Shown here: positions 2 to 24,489 of the stretch, in pieces
Layout: the number at the start of each line of letters is the position of its first letter
How positions within the stretch are numbered: position 1 is the stretch's first letter
From: a virus
Length of the DNA stretch: 42,336 bases
IMG/VR virus record: IMGVR_UViG_3300035034_001727
Location: 1-42,336 of that record
Reading direction: 5' to 3' (one strand)
Translations under genes and position numbers: made by a program
Notes under the pieces: generated by a model
Seen by the model: the letters and a program-made list of their open reading frames with translations, nothing else
Told to the model about the DNA's origin: nothing
Databases searched by the model: none

Positions 2-286
2 GGATTTCATACAATAAAGTCAACTAAAAGTAATGTTGATACTATTGAATTTAAAGAAGTATTAGAAGTAACTAGAAATAAGTTCACTGGTGATTTATTA
101 AAATTTACACTAAATAGTGGTTCAGTTATAGAATGTACACCTGAACATTTATTTCCAATATCTAGAAATGGAGAATTAATAATAACTAAAGCATGTGATA
201 TAATTGACACTGATGAATTTTATATAGAGTCGGAGATAAATAATAAGAAAACACTGACCTCCGATGCTAATTCAATACTCAGATGA
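2..286 (+). CDS. N-terminal half of a split intein (Int-N), 5'-truncated by the window edge; host gene probably a nucleotide-sugar dehydrogenase
   Basis: The reading frame is open from base 2 to a TGA at 284-286 (94 residues visible). It has the look of a Hint domain: short beta-strand-like stretches and the block B motif CTPEHLF (Thr and His are the residues that assist the first N-S acyl shift), followed by a typical 'ITKACDIID' turn. The first intein cysteine and the N-extein lie before base 1, so the host protein is inferred from the other half at 1028-1348, which is in the same frame. The two halves are separated by a complete endonuclease gene in another frame, so the product must end here and act in trans. 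Confident about the Hint fold; the N-extein identity is inference. Confidence 0.82.
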   Translation, partial: GFHTIKSTKSNVDTIEFKEVLEVTRNKFTGDLLKFTLNSGSVIECTPEHLFPISRNGELIITKACDIIDTDEFYIESEINNKKTLTSDANSILR

Positions 287-1025
287 TAAATTAAATACAA
301 AAACTAGAATAGAATTCAATTGCGATAATTGCGGAAAAGATGATAGTAGAAATATGATATCTCACAATAACTTAAAACTAAATAATCCAGACTTTAATAT
401 AGATTATTGTAGATCATGTTGGAATTCAATTCGTCGAACCACTCCTACTGCAAAGAAAATAATGTCTATCGCTATTAATAAAATGATGGATGATGATCCA
501 GATTGGAAAGTTAGAAATTCTAAATCTAAAAAGGGAATAATAAATTTAGGTGATACTAATGGAATGAAACATGAATATGCTAAAAATAAAGTATCATCTA
601 CACGTAAAAAAATGATGACTCCTGAATTTAGAAATAAGATTAGTGAATATACTGCTAAGGCATGGGCCGATGGAAAATATGATGGGGTTAGAGTAGGTCA
701 ATCAAAATGGTTTGATTACGAACATTCAAATGGAACAGTATATAAAGTACAAGGAACATGGGAACTTGCCTTTATAAAATGGATGGATGATGAAAGTATT
801 ACATTTGATTGTCACAGAGGAAGAATACCTTATAATTTAAATGGAAAGAAGAAATCATACTATCCAGACTTTTTTGTTCATGAGTGGAATCAATATGTAG
901 ATATAAAAAACATATATCACTATAATCTTCAGATGGAAAAGTTTGAAGCTCTTAGTGAACAGGGAAATGAAATTAGAATTATATTAAAGGAAGAACTTGA
1001 ATCCTTAACAAAAATAAAACTATAA
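264..1025 (+). CDS. Vsr-like (EDxHD family) homing endonuclease lodged between the halves of a split intein
   Basis: 253 residues. The N-terminal part has a CxxC...CxxC pair (CDNCG near residue 20 and CRSCW near 49), probably a zinc finger. A basic middle section with repeated Lys/Arg patches resembles DNA-binding linkers of phage homing enzymes. The C-terminal domain (about residues 155-235) carries the pattern GTWELAF, then RIPY, YYPDFFV and VDIK, which matches the very-short-patch-repair fold nucleases first described with fractured genes and split inteins. The ATG lies inside the Int-N frame (23-base overlap) and the stop is two bases before the Int-C start, so the three genes form one transcription unit. 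It would cut intein-less copies of the dehydrogenase gene and drive homing. The family call rests on motif recognition by eye. Confidence 0.82.
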   Translation: MLIQYSDDKLNTKTRIEFNCDNCGKDDSRNMISHNNLKLNNPDFNIDYCRSCWNSIRRTTPTAKKIMSIAINKMMDDDPDWKVRNSKSKKGIINLGDTNGMKHEYAKNKVSSTRKKMMTPEFRNKISEYTAKAWADGKYDGVRVGQSKWFDYEHSNGTVYKVQGTWELAFIKWMDDESITFDCHRGRIPYNLNGKKKSYYPDFFVHEWNQYVDIKNIYHYNLQMEKFEALSEQGNEIRIILKEELESLTKIKL

Positions 1026-1027
1026 AT

Positions 1028-1348
1028 ATGAAAATACAAAAAATAGAAAAAGTACCATTTGATGATTATGTATATAATCTAGAATTAAAAACCAATAGCT
1101 CAGAAGATGATTTATTTTGGATAGAAAATAAAAGTGGAATAATTACACATAATTGTTTTCCAAAAGATATCAACGCAATCTTACATATAGCTCAAAAAAT
1201 GAATCTAGGTCTTCCTACTATTACTGGAACGTCAATTACTAATATGATTGTACGTCAAAATAAAGACTGGGAGAAAATGGAAGGAAGAGCAGTTTCAACT
1301 CGACCTGAACTTACAGATGATGTAGTTGAAGAAAATAATAAAGGATAA
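1028..1348 (+). CDS. C-terminal half of the split intein (Int-C) joined to the C-terminal end of a UDP-glucose/GDP-mannose dehydrogenase family protein
   Basis: 106 residues. Residues 1-42 are an Int-C: a beta-strand VYNLELKT (block F), then GIITHN ending in His-Asn (block G) at bases 1148-1153. The next codon, TGT at 1154, is the +1 cysteine and begins CFPKD, the active-site signature of UDP-glucose, GDP-mannose and UDP-ManNAc dehydrogenases, in which this Cys is the catalytic nucleophile. After trans-splicing with Int-N the catalytic Cys would be restored. Only 64 extein residues follow, covering the central helix ('MNLGLPTITGTSITNMIV') but not the usual C-terminal nucleotide-sugar-binding domain, so the phage enzyme is shorter than bacterial homologues. 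It has its own ATG. Which sugar is oxidised cannot be told from this piece. Confidence 0.8.
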   Translation: MKIQKIEKVPFDDYVYNLELKTNSSEDDLFWIENKSGIITHNCFPKDINAILHIAQKMNLGLPTITGTSITNMIVRQNKDWEKMEGRAVSTRPELTDDVVEENNKG

Positions 1349-11237: not shown

Positions 11238-14200
11238 ATGATTAAAACGATGGAAGATACACTTAAAGCTAAAAAAGAAAATTTAACTACATATACACTA
11301 GAAGAGGCAATTGATGCATCTGAGAAATATTTCAATGGAGATACTTTAGCAGCTAGTGTATGGGTTAATAAATATGCATTAAAAGATTCGGATGGAAATA
11401 TCTATGAATCTACACCTGATGAAATGCACGTAAGAATTGCATCTGAGATATCAAGAATAGAGCAAAAATATGATAACCCTATGTCATACGAGCTCATCCT
11501 GTCACTAATTAAAGATTTCAAGTATATTATACCTCAAGGATCTCCAATGAGTGGTATTGGGAACGATTTCCAAACTGTATCTTTGTCTAATTGTTTTGTA
11601 ATAGGACATAATGGTCCATCAGATTCATATGGAGCAATTATGAATACTGATCAAGAACAAGTTCAACTAATGAAACGTAGAGGTGGAGTTGGACATACAC
11701 TTGAAGCAATTCGACCAGGTGGAAGTAGAGTTAATAACTCTGCACTTACTTCAACTGGAGTTGTTCCATTTATGGAGAGATATTCTAATTCAACAAGGGA
11801 AGTTGCACAGGATGGAAGAAGAGGAGCATTAATGCTTTCAATGTCTATCAAGCATCCAGATTCTGAAGCATTTATCGATGCTAAATTAGATGGAACAAAG
11901 GTTACTGGAGCAAACGTATCTATTAAAGCACATGATGAATTCATGAAAGCTGTTACTGGAAACGGTAAATATACACAACAATGGCCAGTTGATTCTGATA
12001 ATCCATCAGTTACTAAAGAAGTAGATGCACATACAATTTGGAATAAAATTGTAGCTAACAACTGGAAGTCAGCTGAGCCTGGTGTTTTATTTTGGGATCA
12101 GATAATTAGAGAATCTCTACCTGATCGATACGCTGATCTAGGATATAAAACTGTTTCTACTAATCCATGTATAATAGGATCTACTCTAATTGCGACGGCA
12201 GATGGTAGAAATGCAGTATCAATTGAACAACTTACTAAAGAAGGTAAAGATGTTCAAGTATATTCAACTGATTCTAATACTGGCCAAATTCAAATAAAAA
12301 CAGGAAGAAATCCTAGAAAAACTGGAGCTAATAAAGAAGTATGGAAGCTAATACTAGATGATGGTAGTCAATTAATAGCTACGCCCGATCATAAGATATT
12401 AACTAAAACATTAGAATATATTAATCTTAAAGATCTTACTCCAGGTCAATCTATATCTCCATTTTACTCATTTGATTCTAATAACTACAGACAAATATCT
12501 AACATAGGAGCAAGATTATCAGGTGGAAGATTTGCAAATAGAAGACAATATAGAGAAATTTATAGATTTAATAACGGAGATATAGATTCTAAGAAATATG
12601 CAATACATCATATTGATTTTAATAATAAAAATGATTCAAATGATAATTTAGAAAAAATGTTACATGAGGATCATAGAAGATTACATGCAGATTTAATGAT
12701 GGGATCTAATAATCCATACCATAATATGACAGATAAGCAAAAGTTTAACTTTGCATCTCATCCTGGTGAATCTAATCCTAAATATTCTGGTTTTACTAAT
12801 TCTGAAATACTAGACCATGGTAAAATACTATTTGATAGAGAAGGAAAGATAACTAAAAGATTATGGATGGCTTATGCTAAAGAACGTAAACTTCCTCAAG
12901 ATTTAGCTAATGATTTTAGGTTTGGTGACTTTTCAAATTTTAAAAATCAAGTGGCATCTAATCATAAAGTAGTATCCGTAGAATTTCATGGATATGAGGA
13001 TGTTTATAATATTACAGTAGATGATAATAATAATTATAACATCATAACTTCTAATGAAGATGATAATTTTGTTACATCATCTGGCATAACAGTTAAAAAT
13101 TGTGGAGAAATTCCACTATGTCCAGATGATTCATGTAGATTATTAGCGGTGAACTTATTATCATATGTTGAAAATCCGTTTACTAAAAATGCGACATTCA
13201 ATTTTGAATTATTTAAAGAGCATGCAAAATATGCATTGAGAATGATGGACGATATCGTTGATCTAGAAGTTGAAAAGATCGATGGAATTCTAAACAAATT
13301 GAAAAGTGATCCAGAATCTCAAACCACAAAGAGAACTGAGATAGAACTATGGACTAGAATCCAAAAGAAATGTAAGGAAGGTAGAAGAACTGGAGTGGGT
13401 ATTACTGCAGAGGGAGATATGTTAGCTGCATTAGGATTAACATATGGAACTAAGAAAGCTACAAAATTTGCTGAGAGCGTTCATAAAACATATGCATTAG
13501 AGGTATTTAGATCATCTAATACTCTTGCTAAAGAGCGTGGACATTTCAAAATATGGGATCCAGCTAGAGAACAAAATCATCCATTTTTAAATAGAATTAA
13601 AGAGGAGGATCCAAAGTTATATAAGGACTTAATGAAATACGGTAGACGCAATATCGCTCTACTCACAATTGCCCCAACTGGAACAGTTTCATTAATGGCA
13701 CAAACTTCTTCTGGAATCGAACCAGCATTTATGGTAGCTTATAGAAGACGTAAGAAAGTAAACCCAAATGATGTAAATTCCAACGCCGTATTCGTTGATG
13801 ACGTAGGAGACCACTGGGAAGAATACAACGTATTTCACCATGCATTTAAACAATGGATCGAAATTACTGGACATAAATATATTCCACAAGAACATAAAGA
13901 AACTCCATTGGAAACTCTTCCAGATGATGTAGTTGATTATCTAACTGAAAAGTCACCGTATCACAAAGGAATGGCTAACGATGTTGATTGGGTAGAAAAG
14001 GTAAGAATGCAAGGAGCAATTCAGAAATGGGTAGATCATTCAATATCAGTAACTGTGAATCTCCCAGAGGAAGTAGATGAAGCCTTAGTAAATGATGTGT
14101 ATATAACAGCATGGAAACATGGATGTAAAGGATGTACTATATATAGAGACGGATCAAGATCTGGAGTTCTAATTTCAAAAGAAGAAAAAGAACAAGATGC

Positions 14201-14756
14201 ACTATTCACAGAACATCATGCACCTAAGAGACCTAAGTCACTAAATACATCAGTGTTGACGTTTATGAATAAAGGAAAAAAATGGGTAGGATTTATTGGA
14301 GAATTAGATGGAAAGCCATATGAGGTATTTACTGGAAACCATGATAATTTTCCTATACCATCATATGTCGAGAATGGAATTATTAAAAGAACAAAGGGAA
14401 AAGATGGAAAATCTAATTATGACTTCATCTATTCTGATAAAAACGGAAATGATATCAGAATTCCTAGTTTAAATCATGCATTTGATGACAGATATTATGA
14501 TATGGCTAAGACTATATCTGCTATATTGAGACACGGAATGCCTTTACCATATGTGATTGATTTATTAGACGGATTAAACTTAGATGGAGAATTTATAAGT
14601 ACTTGGAAAGCAGGAGTTAAACGAATGATCAAAAAGTATATCAAAGATGGTACACTTCAATCCGGAAAAGAATGTAATGAATGTGGATCTGAGTCTCTTG
14701 AATATAAGGAAGGCTGTTTAACCTGTATGTCTTGTGGAAATAGTCGCTGTGGATAA
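11238..14756 (+). CDS. nrdJ: Class II (adenosylcobalamin-dependent) ribonucleotide reductase with an in-frame intein
   Basis: 1172 residues as translated; 861 after removal of a 311-residue intein (residues 311-621). Extein motifs: QGSPMSGIGN and LSNCFV near 95-118, RRGGVGHTLEAIRPGG near 147, NP|CGEIPL at the intein junction (the Cys is the thiyl-radical residue), IAPTGTVSLMAQTSSGIEP near 812 and a C-terminal Cys-rich tail (CNECG...CMSCG...CG) for re-reduction. It reduces ribonucleotides to deoxyribonucleotides without oxygen and without a separate radical subunit, but needs vitamin B12 from the host. An alternative upstream ATG choice changes only a few residues. It is paired with dUTPase. 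Confidence 0.93.
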   Translation: MIKTMEDTLKAKKENLTTYTLEEAIDASEKYFNGDTLAASVWVNKYALKDSDGNIYESTPDEMHVRIASEISRIEQKYDNPMSYELILSLIKDFKYIIPQGSPMSGIGNDFQTVSLSNCFVIGHNGPSDSYGAIMNTDQEQVQLMKRRGGVGHTLEAIRPGGSRVNNSALTSTGVVPFMERYSNSTREVAQDGRRGALMLSMSIKHPDSEAFIDAKLDGTKVTGANVSIKAHDEFMKAVTGNGKYTQQWPVDSDNPSVTKEVDAHTIWNKIVANNWKSAEPGVLFWDQIIRESLPDRYADLGYKTVSTNPCIIGSTLIATADGRNAVSIEQLTKEGKDVQVYSTDSNTGQIQIKTGRNPRKTGANKEVWKLILDDGSQLIATPDHKILTKTLEYINLKDLTPGQSISPFYSFDSNNYRQISNIGARLSGGRFANRRQYREIYRFNNGDIDSKKYAIHHIDFNNKNDSNDNLEKMLHEDHRRLHADLMMGSNNPYHNMTDKQKFNFASHPGESNPKYSGFTNSEILDHGKILFDREGKITKRLWMAYAKERKLPQDLANDFRFGDFSNFKNQVASNHKVVSVEFHGYEDVYNITVDDNNNYNIITSNEDDNFVTSSGITVKNCGEIPLCPDDSCRLLAVNLLSYVENPFTKNATFNFELFKEHAKYALRMMDDIVDLEVEKIDGILNKLKSDPESQTTKRTEIELWTRIQKKCKEGRRTGVGITAEGDMLAALGLTYGTKKATKFAESVHKTYALEVFRSSNTLAKERGHFKIWDPAREQNHPFLNRIKEEDPKLYKDLMKYGRRNIALLTIAPTGTVSLMAQTSSGIEPAFMVAYRRRKKVNPNDVNSNAVFVDDVGDHWEEYNVFHHAFKQWIEITGHKYIPQEHKETPLETLPDDVVDYLTEKSPYHKGMANDVDWVEKVRMQGAIQKWVDHSISVTVNLPEEVDEALVNDVYITAWKHGCKGCTIYRDGSRSGVLISKEEKEQDALFTEHHAPKRPKSLNTSVLTFMNKGKKWVGFIGELDGKPYEVFTGNHDNFPIPSYVENGIIKRTKGKDGKSNYDFIYSDKNGNDIRIPSLNHAFDDRYYDMAKTISAILRHGMPLPYVIDLLDGLNLDGEFISTWKAGVKRMIKKYIKDGTLQSGKECNECGSESLEYKEGCLTCMSCGNSRCG
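12168..13100 (+). mobile_element. Intein in NrdJ with HNH homing endonuclease domain
   Basis: The intein starts with Cys (TGT at 12168, after STNP) and ends with Asn (AAT at 13098) directly before the catalytic Cys of NPCGE. Block B is LIATPDHKIL with the Thr-x-x-His pair. The insert holds an HNH domain: YAIHHIDFNNKNDSNDNL with HH at 457-458, then EDHRRLH at 478-483. The C-terminal block is VYNITVDD followed by SSGITVKN. The residue before the final Asn is Lys instead of the usual His. The intein is in frame and looks intact, so it should splice in cis and may still home. Confidence 0.9.
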
Positions 14757-23052: not shown

Positions 23053-24489
23053 ATGATAATTGGCGTAGAAGTACAAGAACGTGATTTAATGATCTCATAC
23101 TATGATGCTGATGGAAAAATAGCATATATTAGAAAGAGACTAGCAGAGCACGAGATATTTAATTGGGTAGAACACAACCGTCCATCTCAGTATAAAAACT
23201 GGGACGGTACCTTTATTAAACAAGAATCATCTAATCCAAAGTGGCTAGCTAGAACTAGACTAGAGGAACTTATTATTGATAAGCTAACTCCATATGAAAA
23301 AGCACTAATCTATAATTTTGAAAATTTTCCAAAGAAGGACTATATCGATATTGAGATTAAATTAACAAGTGATGAGTTTCCAAAACCAGAAGAGGTTAAA
23401 ATGCCAGTTGGTATGATTTCTTTTTGTAATGAAGAGGGAGTCAATTATGTACTATCAATTATGGATTCAGAAGAACATCCAAATGGATTAAGTGACGATG
23501 ATATTCAAAGAATGGAAGTTGAGGTGAATGATTATTTCAAAAATACAATTCCACATGATCCTAAAGATAGAAAAATACTCGATCAAGATTTCACAATCAA
23601 ACATAAGTTTTTTAATAGTGAAAAGGAACTTCTAGAATTTTATTTTCACCAAATTGCTCCTAGACAACCATTTTTAACAGGATGGAATGTTGTAGACTTT
23701 GACTGGCAATACTTAATGAATAGAACTTCTAAAATTGGAGTTGATTCACTTAAGAATATGACTTCTAGAAAAACTTTCTCAAAAAGGCATAAATTACCAA
23801 CTCACATGGGAATTGTGGATTATATGCAACTATTTATTGATCCAGGATATAAGCCATATAAAGTAGTTGAGAATTATACTCTTGATTATATTGCATCAAA
23901 AGCATTAAATACTTCTAAGTTAAAACATCCATACAAAAGCTTTAGAGAATTTCAACAAGATGTTTATATGTTTACACTATATAACATCATTGATAATATT
24001 CTAGTAAAATTATTAGAAGATAAGTTTGGATTACTTGAGGTTGCGTTCTCTACTGCAAACGTGGCAGAGGTTGAAGTGAATAAGGTATTTAGCCCAGTTC
24101 ATATCACTGAGGTATTAATGTGTCGTCAGTTTTTGAATTCAAATCTTAAAATGCTTAAGAAAGGATATCAAAGTAAATCCGATGAAGAGGATGCAACATA
24201 TGCCGGAGCATACGTAATGCCCCCAGTTCCTGGATATTATAAATTTGTATCATGTTATGACTTCAAATCAATGTACCCTAATATCCAAATGCAATTTAAT
24301 TGTTGTCCATCTGCTTATCTTGGAAAAATAGGAATGATCAAAACAAACGGCACTGAAATTACAACTAAGAATAATACCTTATTTGATAGTCAAAAAGATT
24401 CAGTGGCAAGAGTTATATTAGAAAGATTATATAATGCTAGGATAGAGGCCCAAGAAGAAATCAAAGATTTAAAATTCAATAGAAAATGA
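23053..24489 (+). CDS. 43: DNA polymerase gp43, N-terminal part only (exonuclease domain to palm motif A)
   Basis: 478 residues against about 900 for T4 gp43. The proofreading exonuclease is complete: D99-I-E101 (ExoI), GWNVVDFDW with Asn212 and Asp217 (ExoII), and Tyr310-x3-Asp314 in YNIIDN (ExoIII). Polymerase motif A is present at DFKSMYPNI (Asp403). The frame ends at FNRK with TGA, just where motif B (K-x3-N-S-x-Y-G) should follow, and the motif C Asp-Thr-Asp is absent. No continuation was found in any frame downstream, nor elsewhere in the window. The rest must be encoded elsewhere as a second subunit, or the gene is broken. Exonuclease and motif residues look intact, arguing for a working split enzyme. 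Confidence 0.85.
   Translation: MIIGVEVQERDLMISYYDADGKIAYIRKRLAEHEIFNWVEHNRPSQYKNWDGTFIKQESSNPKWLARTRLEELIIDKLTPYEKALIYNFENFPKKDYIDIEIKLTSDEFPKPEEVKMPVGMISFCNEEGVNYVLSIMDSEEHPNGLSDDDIQRMEVEVNDYFKNTIPHDPKDRKILDQDFTIKHKFFNSEKELLEFYFHQIAPRQPFLTGWNVVDFDWQYLMNRTSKIGVDSLKNMTSRKTFSKRHKLPTHMGIVDYMQLFIDPGYKPYKVVENYTLDYIASKALNTSKLKHPYKSFREFQQDVYMFTLYNIIDNILVKLLEDKFGLLEVAFSTANVAEVEVNKVFSPVHITEVLMCRQFLNSNLKMLKKGYQSKSDEEDATYAGAYVMPPVPGYYKFVSCYDFKSMYPNIQMQFNCCPSAYLGKIGMIKTNGTEITTKNNTLFDSQKDSVARVILERLYNARIEAQEEIKDLKFNRK

What the first reader, a model, noticed from the sequence alone, without database searches (positions are those of the whole stretch)
2..1348. Split intein with free-standing Vsr-like homing endonuclease in a nucleotide-sugar dehydrogenase
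Int-N (2-286) and Int-C (1028-1348) are in the same frame but separated by a complete endonuclease gene in another frame, and each has its own stop or start. This is the 'fractured gene' layout known from a few marine phage genes (helicase, NrdA/NrdJ, IMPDH). I do not recall it for a UDP-glucose/GDP-mannose dehydrogenase. Splicing would rebuild the catalytic CFPKD motif.
Basis: partly seen in the sequence, partly recalled or inferred. Interest (0 to 1): 0.88.

Follow-up and report, generated by a model that had tools for sequence, protein, structure and literature searches.

The report
Split intein interrupts phage sugar-dehydrogenase gene
A phage gene for a sugar-oxidising enzyme is cut in two, right at its catalytic cysteine, by a split self-splicing protein element with a DNA-cutting gene between its halves, and relatives show the same family of cutter also living beside unbroken copies of that gene.

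Summary
Bases 2-286 are the 3' part of an intein N-half (its Cys1 lies beyond the contig edge), 264-1025 an endonuclease gene in another frame, 1028-1153 an intein C-half ending His-Asn, 1154-1348 the end of a nucleotide-sugar dehydrogenase starting at its catalytic Cys (CFPKD). Relatives supply the left side: dehydrogenase ...GGH | Cys-intein. I found 25 distinct fractured loci at this site in viral contigs: 22 with an intact endonuclease, two with remnants, one with none. Close relatives are intein-free. The insert is more alike than its surroundings between two phages (four-fold sites 15/99 vs 148/412 differ, p 4e-5), and the fractured dehydrogenases nearest the window are not one clade (p 3e-4): a mobile element. 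'Vsr-like' needs correcting: the active site is canonical PD-(D/E)XK, nearest T7 endonuclease I by sequence and TnsA by fold. Unsplit inteins at this site occur in many cellular genomes; the fractured layout is known from other genes. New, as far as I could search: this gene, this endonuclease family, and its second lifestyle, free-standing just downstream of intact dehydrogenases with altered target codons. That resembles collaborative homing. Splicing and cleavage are inferred, not shown.

The parts
2..286 (+). Int-N fragment (residues after about the 27th; Cys1 and block A lie left of the contig edge), own stop codon TGA
   Evidence: ORF; PF14890 E 1.2e-4; 86% identical to the L003 Int-N, which starts with Cys after ...GFGGH; Int-N profile hits solved inteins of MJ0781, PolC, NrdJ-1, gp41-1
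137..148 (+). Intein block B T-P-E-H (TxxH motif; label from general knowledge)
   Evidence: T and H invariant in 8 of 8 Int-N rows
264..1025 (+). Endonuclease gene, 253 aa, frame different from the intein halves; overlaps Int-N by 23 bases, ends 2 bases before the Int-C start
   Evidence: ORF; overlaps and gaps; dN 0.04, dS 0.26 against L003
321..419 (+). N-terminal CxxC...CxxC region of the endonuclease, zinc-finger-like (label inferred)
   Evidence: all four Cys in 22 of 22 endonucleases of fractured loci
708..1010 (+). PD-(D/E)XK catalytic domain; E167 at 762-764, P201-D202 at 864-869, D213-x-K215 at 900-908
   Evidence: residues kept in 42 of 42; T7 endonuclease I profile match; AlphaFold2 pLDDT about 85-92 per block here; TnsA Z 8.6
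1028..1153 (+). Int-C (42 aa) with its own ATG, ending His-Asn
   Evidence: ORF; alignment A2, H and N invariant in 8 of 8 rows
1154..1348 (+). C-extein of a nucleotide-sugar dehydrogenase, starting at the catalytic Cys (CFPKD), with stop
   Evidence: 89% identical over 54 residues to the intact gene in L006; that gene has PF03721 E 1.1e-23 and PF00984 E 7.9e-26

Best explanation
This is a mobile, naturally split intein in a phage nucleotide-sugar dehydrogenase gene, with a homing endonuclease gene between its halves. Three abutting or overlapping genes make (1) dehydrogenase N-part + Int-N, (2) the endonuclease, (3) Int-C + dehydrogenase C-part. The intein halves join the two pieces and leave at the protein level, with the enzyme's own catalytic Cys as the +1 nucleophile, so only the spliced product can be an active enzyme. 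The endonuclease most likely cuts intein-free copies of the gene at or near the codons around that Cys; repair from the interrupted copy spreads the whole insert, and the insert shields its own genome by splitting the target. Shown here: anatomy, conserved splicing and nuclease residues, empty and occupied relatives, recent shared history of the insert, and the tie of this endonuclease family to this gene. Inferred: trans-splicing, cleavage, target and homing.
For: HN|Cys on the C side in 25 of 25 fractured loci and a Cys after the dehydrogenase on the N side in 24 of 24 relatives. Intein-free relatives with (by eye) the same neighbouring genes, e.g. L006, 89% identical to the L003 N-extein. 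Insert 91-93% identical between window and L003, C-extein 79%, the four following genes 63, 83, 80 and 84%; four-fold sites 15/99 against 148/412 differ, p 3.9e-5. The fractured dehydrogenases L003, L004, L005, L015 are not one clade (p-AU 2.8e-4), nor with L033, whose endonuclease groups with theirs (p-AU 1.7e-6). Endonuclease dN well under dS in all six pairs compared, 0.04/0.26 to 0.24/1.46. Of the 80 loci (near-copies included) fetched by endonuclease patterns alone, 45 of 45 scoring 80 bits or more lie in or beside this gene, 0 of 35 weaker ones within the DNA held (L047 judged from its C-extein).
Against: No biochemical test. In the window itself Cys1 and the N-extein are missing. Against the C-extein alone the insert's lower divergence is not significant (five of 16 four-fold differences, p 0.15), so the contrast rests on the following genes, which may evolve differently. 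AU groups were named after seeing the trees. No cleavage site is known. Foldseek gave no match at E 0.001 or better; Z 8.6 for TnsA is middling by the tool's own scale, and a mitoribosomal protein (7.8) and Bax1 (6.8) come next, before I-Bth0305I.
Confidence: 0.87

Rival explanations
1. The dehydrogenase is a decaying pseudogene: the intein was broken by an endonuclease gene and nothing is spliced.
For: No splicing shown; two relatives have decayed endonucleases (L007, L008).
Against: Cys1 kept in 7 of 7, TxxH and HN-Cys in 8 of 8 aligned rows; N-extein dN 0.09 against dS 1.16 between fractured L003 and L004; the halves stay open where the endonuclease has decayed (L007, L008) or gone (L023).
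Confidence: 0.05
2. The three pieces are joined before or during translation (frameshifting, RNA splicing), so the intein works in cis.
For: Genes overlap or abut; in cellular genomes inteins fetched at this site are nearly all in one frame (78 of 80).
Against: Int-N ends at its own stop and Int-C has a start codon near its beginning in 25 of 25 loci, with differing frames (starts assigned by position). No frameshift site or intron was looked for.
Confidence: 0.03
3. The endonuclease is a resident phage enzyme (for example a T7-endonuclease-I-like resolvase) that happens to sit here and does not drive homing.
For: Best sequence match among solved structures is T7 endonuclease I, a Holliday junction resolvase (recalled).
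Against: Added N-terminal CxxC and helical region, as in other phage homing enzymes (recalled); 45 of 45 strong members in or beside one host gene; its genes do not follow the dehydrogenase tree.
Confidence: 0.08
4. The endonuclease is a member of the Vsr/EDxHD homing family, making this a standard fractured gene.
For: I-Bth0305I Z 6.2 and Vsr Z 5.5 in the second-look fold comparison; an invariant His184 (42 of 42) whose role is unknown.
Against: D/E-x-K as in PD-(D/E)XK in 42 of 42; TnsA scores higher (Z 8.6); the sequence profile hits T7 endonuclease I and not Vsr at E up to 1.
Confidence: 0.1

Closest known systems
Fractured genes with split inteins and free-standing endonucleases (Dassa et al. 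2009, NAR 37:2560; recalled, paper not held; seen only as a reference in PMC6892783, PMC10448857, PMC3653736 and PMC7090010)
   Same: Conserved enzyme gene cut by a split intein with an endonuclease gene between the halves
   Different: Host genes recalled there are helicase, ribonucleotide reductase, IMPDH and the like, endonuclease EDxHD (recalled); here a nucleotide-sugar dehydrogenase and a PD-(D/E)XK enzyme near T7 endonuclease I and TnsA
Split PolB intein with HNH endonuclease in jumbo phage MIJ3 (PMC6892783, passages)
   Same: Same three-part layout in a phage
   Different: DNA polymerase, HNH nuclease
'udp' inteins of UDP-glucose 6-dehydrogenase in Halobacteria, Methanocaldococcus and others (PMC4071816, passages)
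   Same: Same host gene family; unsplit inteins that I fetched from cellular genomes by HN-CFPKD sit at the same catalytic-Cys site (78 of 80 loci in one frame)
   Different: One open reading frame, 169-495 aa; no match to this endonuclease on the forward strand of those 80 loci. That the published ones share the exact site was not read in the paper.
Collaborative homing of F-CphI and the psbA intron in cyanophages (PMC6083498, passages)
   Same: Free-standing phage homing endonuclease related to a resolvase, beside the gene whose insertion site it targets
   Different: Group I intron rather than split intein; nuclease related to T4 endonuclease VII; cleavage proven there, not here

Membership tests
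Split intein | Cys/Ser at intein position 1 after the N-extein | tested here: met
   Cys in 24 of 24 fractured relatives; not visible in the window itself, which starts inside Int-N
Split intein | Block B TxxH, C-terminal HN, nucleophile at +1 | tested here: met
   T and H 8 of 8; HNC 8 of 8
Split intein | Halves encoded by separate open reading frames | tested here: met
   25 of 25 loci
Split intein | Trans-splicing activity | not testable with these tools
   needs expression of both halves
Fractured-gene arrangement | Complete endonuclease gene between the intein halves of a conserved enzyme gene | tested here: met
   22 of 25 distinct loci, active-site residues kept in 22 of 22
EDxHD (Vsr-like) homing endonucleases | EDxHD active site instead of PD-(D/E)XK | tested here: inconclusive
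   Conserved residues are E, PD, D/E-x-K, which speaks against; the reference sequences could not be compared directly and the fold match to I-Bth0305I is Z 6.2
PD-(D/E)XK nucleases | E / PD / (D/E)xK residues on the core fold | tested here: met
Homing endonucleases | Site-specific cleavage of the insert-free allele | not testable with these tools
   indirect signs only
UDP-glucose/GDP-mannose dehydrogenases | NAD-binding and central domains | tested here: met
   intact relative L006: PF03721 E 1.1e-23, PF00984 E 7.9e-26; profile of 11 relatives to 4a7p E 6e-43
UDP-glucose/GDP-mannose dehydrogenases | C-terminal UDP-binding domain PF03720 | tested here: not met
   not listed at E 0.01 in the intact phage genes L006 (304 aa, 303 scanned) and L056 (300 aa); listed just under its cut-off (E 1.5e-6) in the other subtype, L038. 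So the window's enzyme is a short form of the family.

The most novel reading that the evidence does not exclude
One endonuclease lineage is specialised on the catalytic-Cys codons of phage nucleotide-sugar dehydrogenases and has two lifestyles that can turn into each other: between the halves of a split intein, where the insert interrupts the target, or free-standing just downstream of an unbroken gene, where the target is protected by altered codons (GG[HS]-C-[FL]-P-K-D changed in 15 of 15 such alleles, against 3 of 75 sites in plain genes). The series, including endonuclease remnants that keep the start region of Int-C and one split intein with no endonuclease left, would then show how collaborative homing leads to fractured genes and how a naturally split intein becomes fixed.
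Probability: 0.5. Interest if true: 0.8.

Novelty: new variant of a known kind. Interest (0 to 1): 0.64.

Why it matters
A 2023 survey of phage homing genes (PMC10448857, passages) says it is not clear how collaborative homing arrangements arise, and offers endonuclease turnover as one answer. Here the same endonuclease family is found free-standing beside the host gene, inside a split intein in that gene, decayed, and lost, so that each step can be put to the bench. It also gives 25 natural split inteins at one site, possible tools for protein ligation, and an enzyme whose catalytic Cys would be the splicing nucleophile. Neighbouring genes in L007, L008 and L010 look by eye like further sugar-nucleotide genes (not searched), so the host gene probably serves surface-sugar synthesis (inference).

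Tried and rejected
Vsr/EDxHD label: not upheld (see membership test). Foldseek against PDB gave no match at E 0.001 or better; only the VIA second look was informative, and families missing there are not read as excluded. Reading the left side of the window's own gene: no exact match. tblastn of the Int-C + C-extein in annotated phages: no match at E 0.01; the endonuclease gave 13 distant records, all under 60% identity. Plasmid and E. coli collections were not searched.

Recoded-target idea, controls: the third residue from Cys (Cys counted as one) is Pro in 24 of 25 intein-bearing alleles (23 split plus the unsplit L027 and L028), 4 of 15 endonuclease-adjacent and 71 of 73 plain ones. But independent pairs on the tree are only 4: endonuclease-adjacent against plain, 2.5 for, 0.6 against, median p 0.625; against plain and intein-bearing together, 2.7 for, 0.1 against, median p 0.25. 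So tree-corrected support is lacking, and the idea came after seeing the data. Two plain alleles (L117, L118) carry CFVKD without this endonuclease nearby, against the idea; L056 and L057 among the 15 are near-copies. Rows dropped: 8 plain loci in which the site pattern was not found (L124, L125, L137, L168, L170, L172, L177, L178); L106, L108, L109, L111-L114, L116, L119 as copies or fractured loci already held; L059, L062, L065, L068, L070 as near-copies of endonuclease-adjacent rows; L047 (left end cut); the window and L002 (no N-extein); and other loci of the same contigs or near-copies (L011, L013, L014, L024-L026, L029-L032, L035, L037, L039, L043-L045, L051, L052, L054, L066). The 75 sites were not cleared of copies.

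Scar search after the downstream endonuclease: 1 of 14 loci (L033); the pattern missed even the gene's own end in 2 of the 14, L041 and L060. Charge of the halves: Int-N acidic, Int-C near neutral, not informative. The first intein-length count in cellular genomes had an indexing error of mine and is replaced, where one of the 78 (left junction GAD, probably L220) is doubtful and two (L231, L262) are unresolved.

Literature: searches listed no report that I recognised of a split intein or fractured layout in a nucleotide-sugar dehydrogenase; I saw listings and, for some, passages (PMC3322345, PMC7090010, PMC6083498, PMC3943268, PMC4071816, PMC10448857, PMC3653736, PMC6892783, PMC2988022, PMC11923092). 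PMC3322345 names a phage with a UDP-glucose dehydrogenase gene and with inteins, but in other genes in the passages seen. Dassa 2009, Taylor 2011 (I-Bth0305I) and Carvajal-Vallejos 2012 are not held, so a mention there cannot be excluded.

Full report
What is there. The window is a whole 42,336-bp virus record and the finding sits at its left edge. Three forward ORFs follow each other: 2-286, open to the left; 264-1025 in another frame; 1028-1348 in the frame of the first. Int-N meets Pfam Intein_splicing at E 1.2e-4 and the endonuclease meets DUF7487 at 8.3e-5, both under the curated cut-offs; the short C-extein meets the dehydrogenase central domain only at E 0.077. These alone would not settle the case; relatives do.

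Relatives with the left side. A search of viral contigs with the Int-C + C-extein and translation of the neighbourhoods showed the whole arrangement: dehydrogenase ending mostly GGH, then Cys and Int-N, stop, endonuclease, Int-C ending HN, then CFPKD (junctions). The intact gene of L006 carries the NAD-binding and central domains (E 1.1e-23 and 7.9e-26) but no UDP-binding domain at E 0.01, 304 aa in all; a profile of 11 intact relatives matches solved UDP-glucose dehydrogenases such as 4a7p, E 6e-43, with GGSCFPKD aligned. That this Cys is the catalytic one is established knowledge of the family (recalled). The Int-N profile matches the inteins of MJ0781, PolC, NrdJ-1 (E 8.9e-7) and gp41-1 (E 1.4e-3).

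How many. Profile scans of 105 loci, with later inspection, give 25 distinct fractured loci: 22 with an intact endonuclease (including the window), L007 and L008 with remnants, and L023 (with near-copies L024-L026) with 30 bases between the halves. Six of the 25 (L023, L038, L042, L046, L047, L049) are in another dehydrogenase subtype, C|HPRD. L027 and L028 hold unsplit inteins at the same site; L027 has LAGLIDADG_3, E 6.9e-12. Of these 80, 45 score 80 bits or more and all 45 lie in or beside this gene; none of the other 35 does within the DNA held (L047 from its C-extein). Near-copies are included in these counts.

Gene layout. In 16 of the 24 loci with an endonuclease or remnant, the endonuclease stop overlaps the Int-C start by 4 bases; in the window the gap is 2 bases. 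Nine of the 24 have GGAG within the 20 bases before the start (starts assigned by position). L007 and L008 have lost different parts of the endonuclease but both keep its 3' end and that overlap. I infer that the 3' end is kept because it starts translation of Int-C.

Mobility. Between window and L003 the insert is 91-93% identical, the C-extein 79%, the following genes 63-84%; four-fold sites differ in 15 of 99 inside and 148 of 412 outside (p 3.9e-5), though against the C-extein alone the difference is not significant (p 0.15). Endonuclease dN/dS is 0.04/0.26. In a dehydrogenase tree without the site columns, fractured genes L003, L004, L005, L015 mix with empty ones (L006, L107); one clade is rejected (p-AU 2.8e-4), as is one with L033 (1.7e-6), whose endonuclease groups with theirs (99/95). 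A third test, L010, L016, L050, gave p-AU 0.034, with L016 only 36% filled. The groups were chosen after seeing the trees.

Second lifestyle. Twenty loci (15 after removing most near-copies) carry the endonuclease just downstream of an unbroken dehydrogenase; the profile match starts 71-284 bases after the dehydrogenase stop in the 15. In L033 the endonuclease frame runs on into a second copy of a dehydrogenase 3' end, as if the pair had recombined into a resident gene; 1 of 14 such loci checked shows this. In the 15 the target codons depart from GG[HS]-C-[FL]-P-K-D (11 at Pro, the other 4 just before Cys), against 3 of 75 sites in plain genes. Sister pairs such as L041/L186 and L067/L160 differ this way, but tree-corrected tests have only four pairs and are not significant. 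On the endonuclease tree the two lifestyles need at least 3 changes, 2 forced by well-supported branches.

Endonuclease family. E167, P201-D202, D/E213 and K215 are kept in 42 of 42 members, 22 from fractured loci and 20 downstream; four N-terminal Cys in 22 of 22 fractured ones. Profile search of solved structures: T7 endonuclease I, E 5.7e-4. Pfam on six members: DUF7487 in 6, Phage_endo_I in 2, TnsA-like in 2, NUMOD3 in 1. AlphaFold2: mean pLDDT 75.8, catalytic part about 85-92, pTM 0.42. VIA second look: TnsA Z 8.6, I-Bth0305I 6.2, Vsr 5.5, with a mitoribosomal protein (7.8) and Bax1 (6.8) between TnsA and I-Bth0305I. So it is a PD-(D/E)XK enzyme; Vsr is a distant cousin.

What is known. 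Inteins in this gene are published ('udp', PMC4071816, passages). A scan of cellular genomes for HN-CFPKD gave 147 stretches, 116 relatives, 80 kept, of which 78 are in one frame (169-495 aa, one of them doubtful) and 2 unresolved; the forward strands of those 80 loci hold no match to this endonuclease. Split inteins with an endonuclease between the halves are known in a phage polymerase (PMC6892783, passages) and, as recalled, in the genes of Dassa 2009. Collaborative homing is known for introns (PMC6083498, passages; PMC2988022, passages). Hence 'new variant of a known kind'.

Verdict. Splicing, cleavage and protection by altered codons are proposals for the bench.

Noticed in passing
window 11238-14756: Ribonucleotide reductase gene holding an unsplit intein with a weak HNH_3 match (Intein_splicing E 1.6e-11, HNH_3 E 0.0034, the latter below cut-off): a second intein in the same phage.
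   Followed up: partly
window 23053-24489: DNA polymerase B gene that stops after profile position 139 of 453; the family search found no other DNA_pol_B match in the record. A split or broken polymerase whose other part may lie off the contig.
   Followed up: partly
L006 3500-4258: Another nuclease gene (NUMOD3 E 2.6e-14, TnsA-like E 1.1e-4, the latter below cut-off) directly upstream of the intein-free dehydrogenase closest to the window's.
   Followed up: partly
L033 656-1477: Endonuclease frame continuing into a duplicated dehydrogenase 3' end, downstream of an intact dehydrogenase: a possible homing scar.
   Followed up: partly
L023-L026: Split intein in a C|HPRD-type dehydrogenase with no endonuclease; halves 30 bases apart in the same frame with a stop between (L023).
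   Followed up: partly
L027 3348-5246, L028 3303-5225: Phage-borne unsplit inteins at the same catalytic-Cys site; LAGLIDADG_3 confirmed in L027, L028 not scanned.
   Followed up: partly
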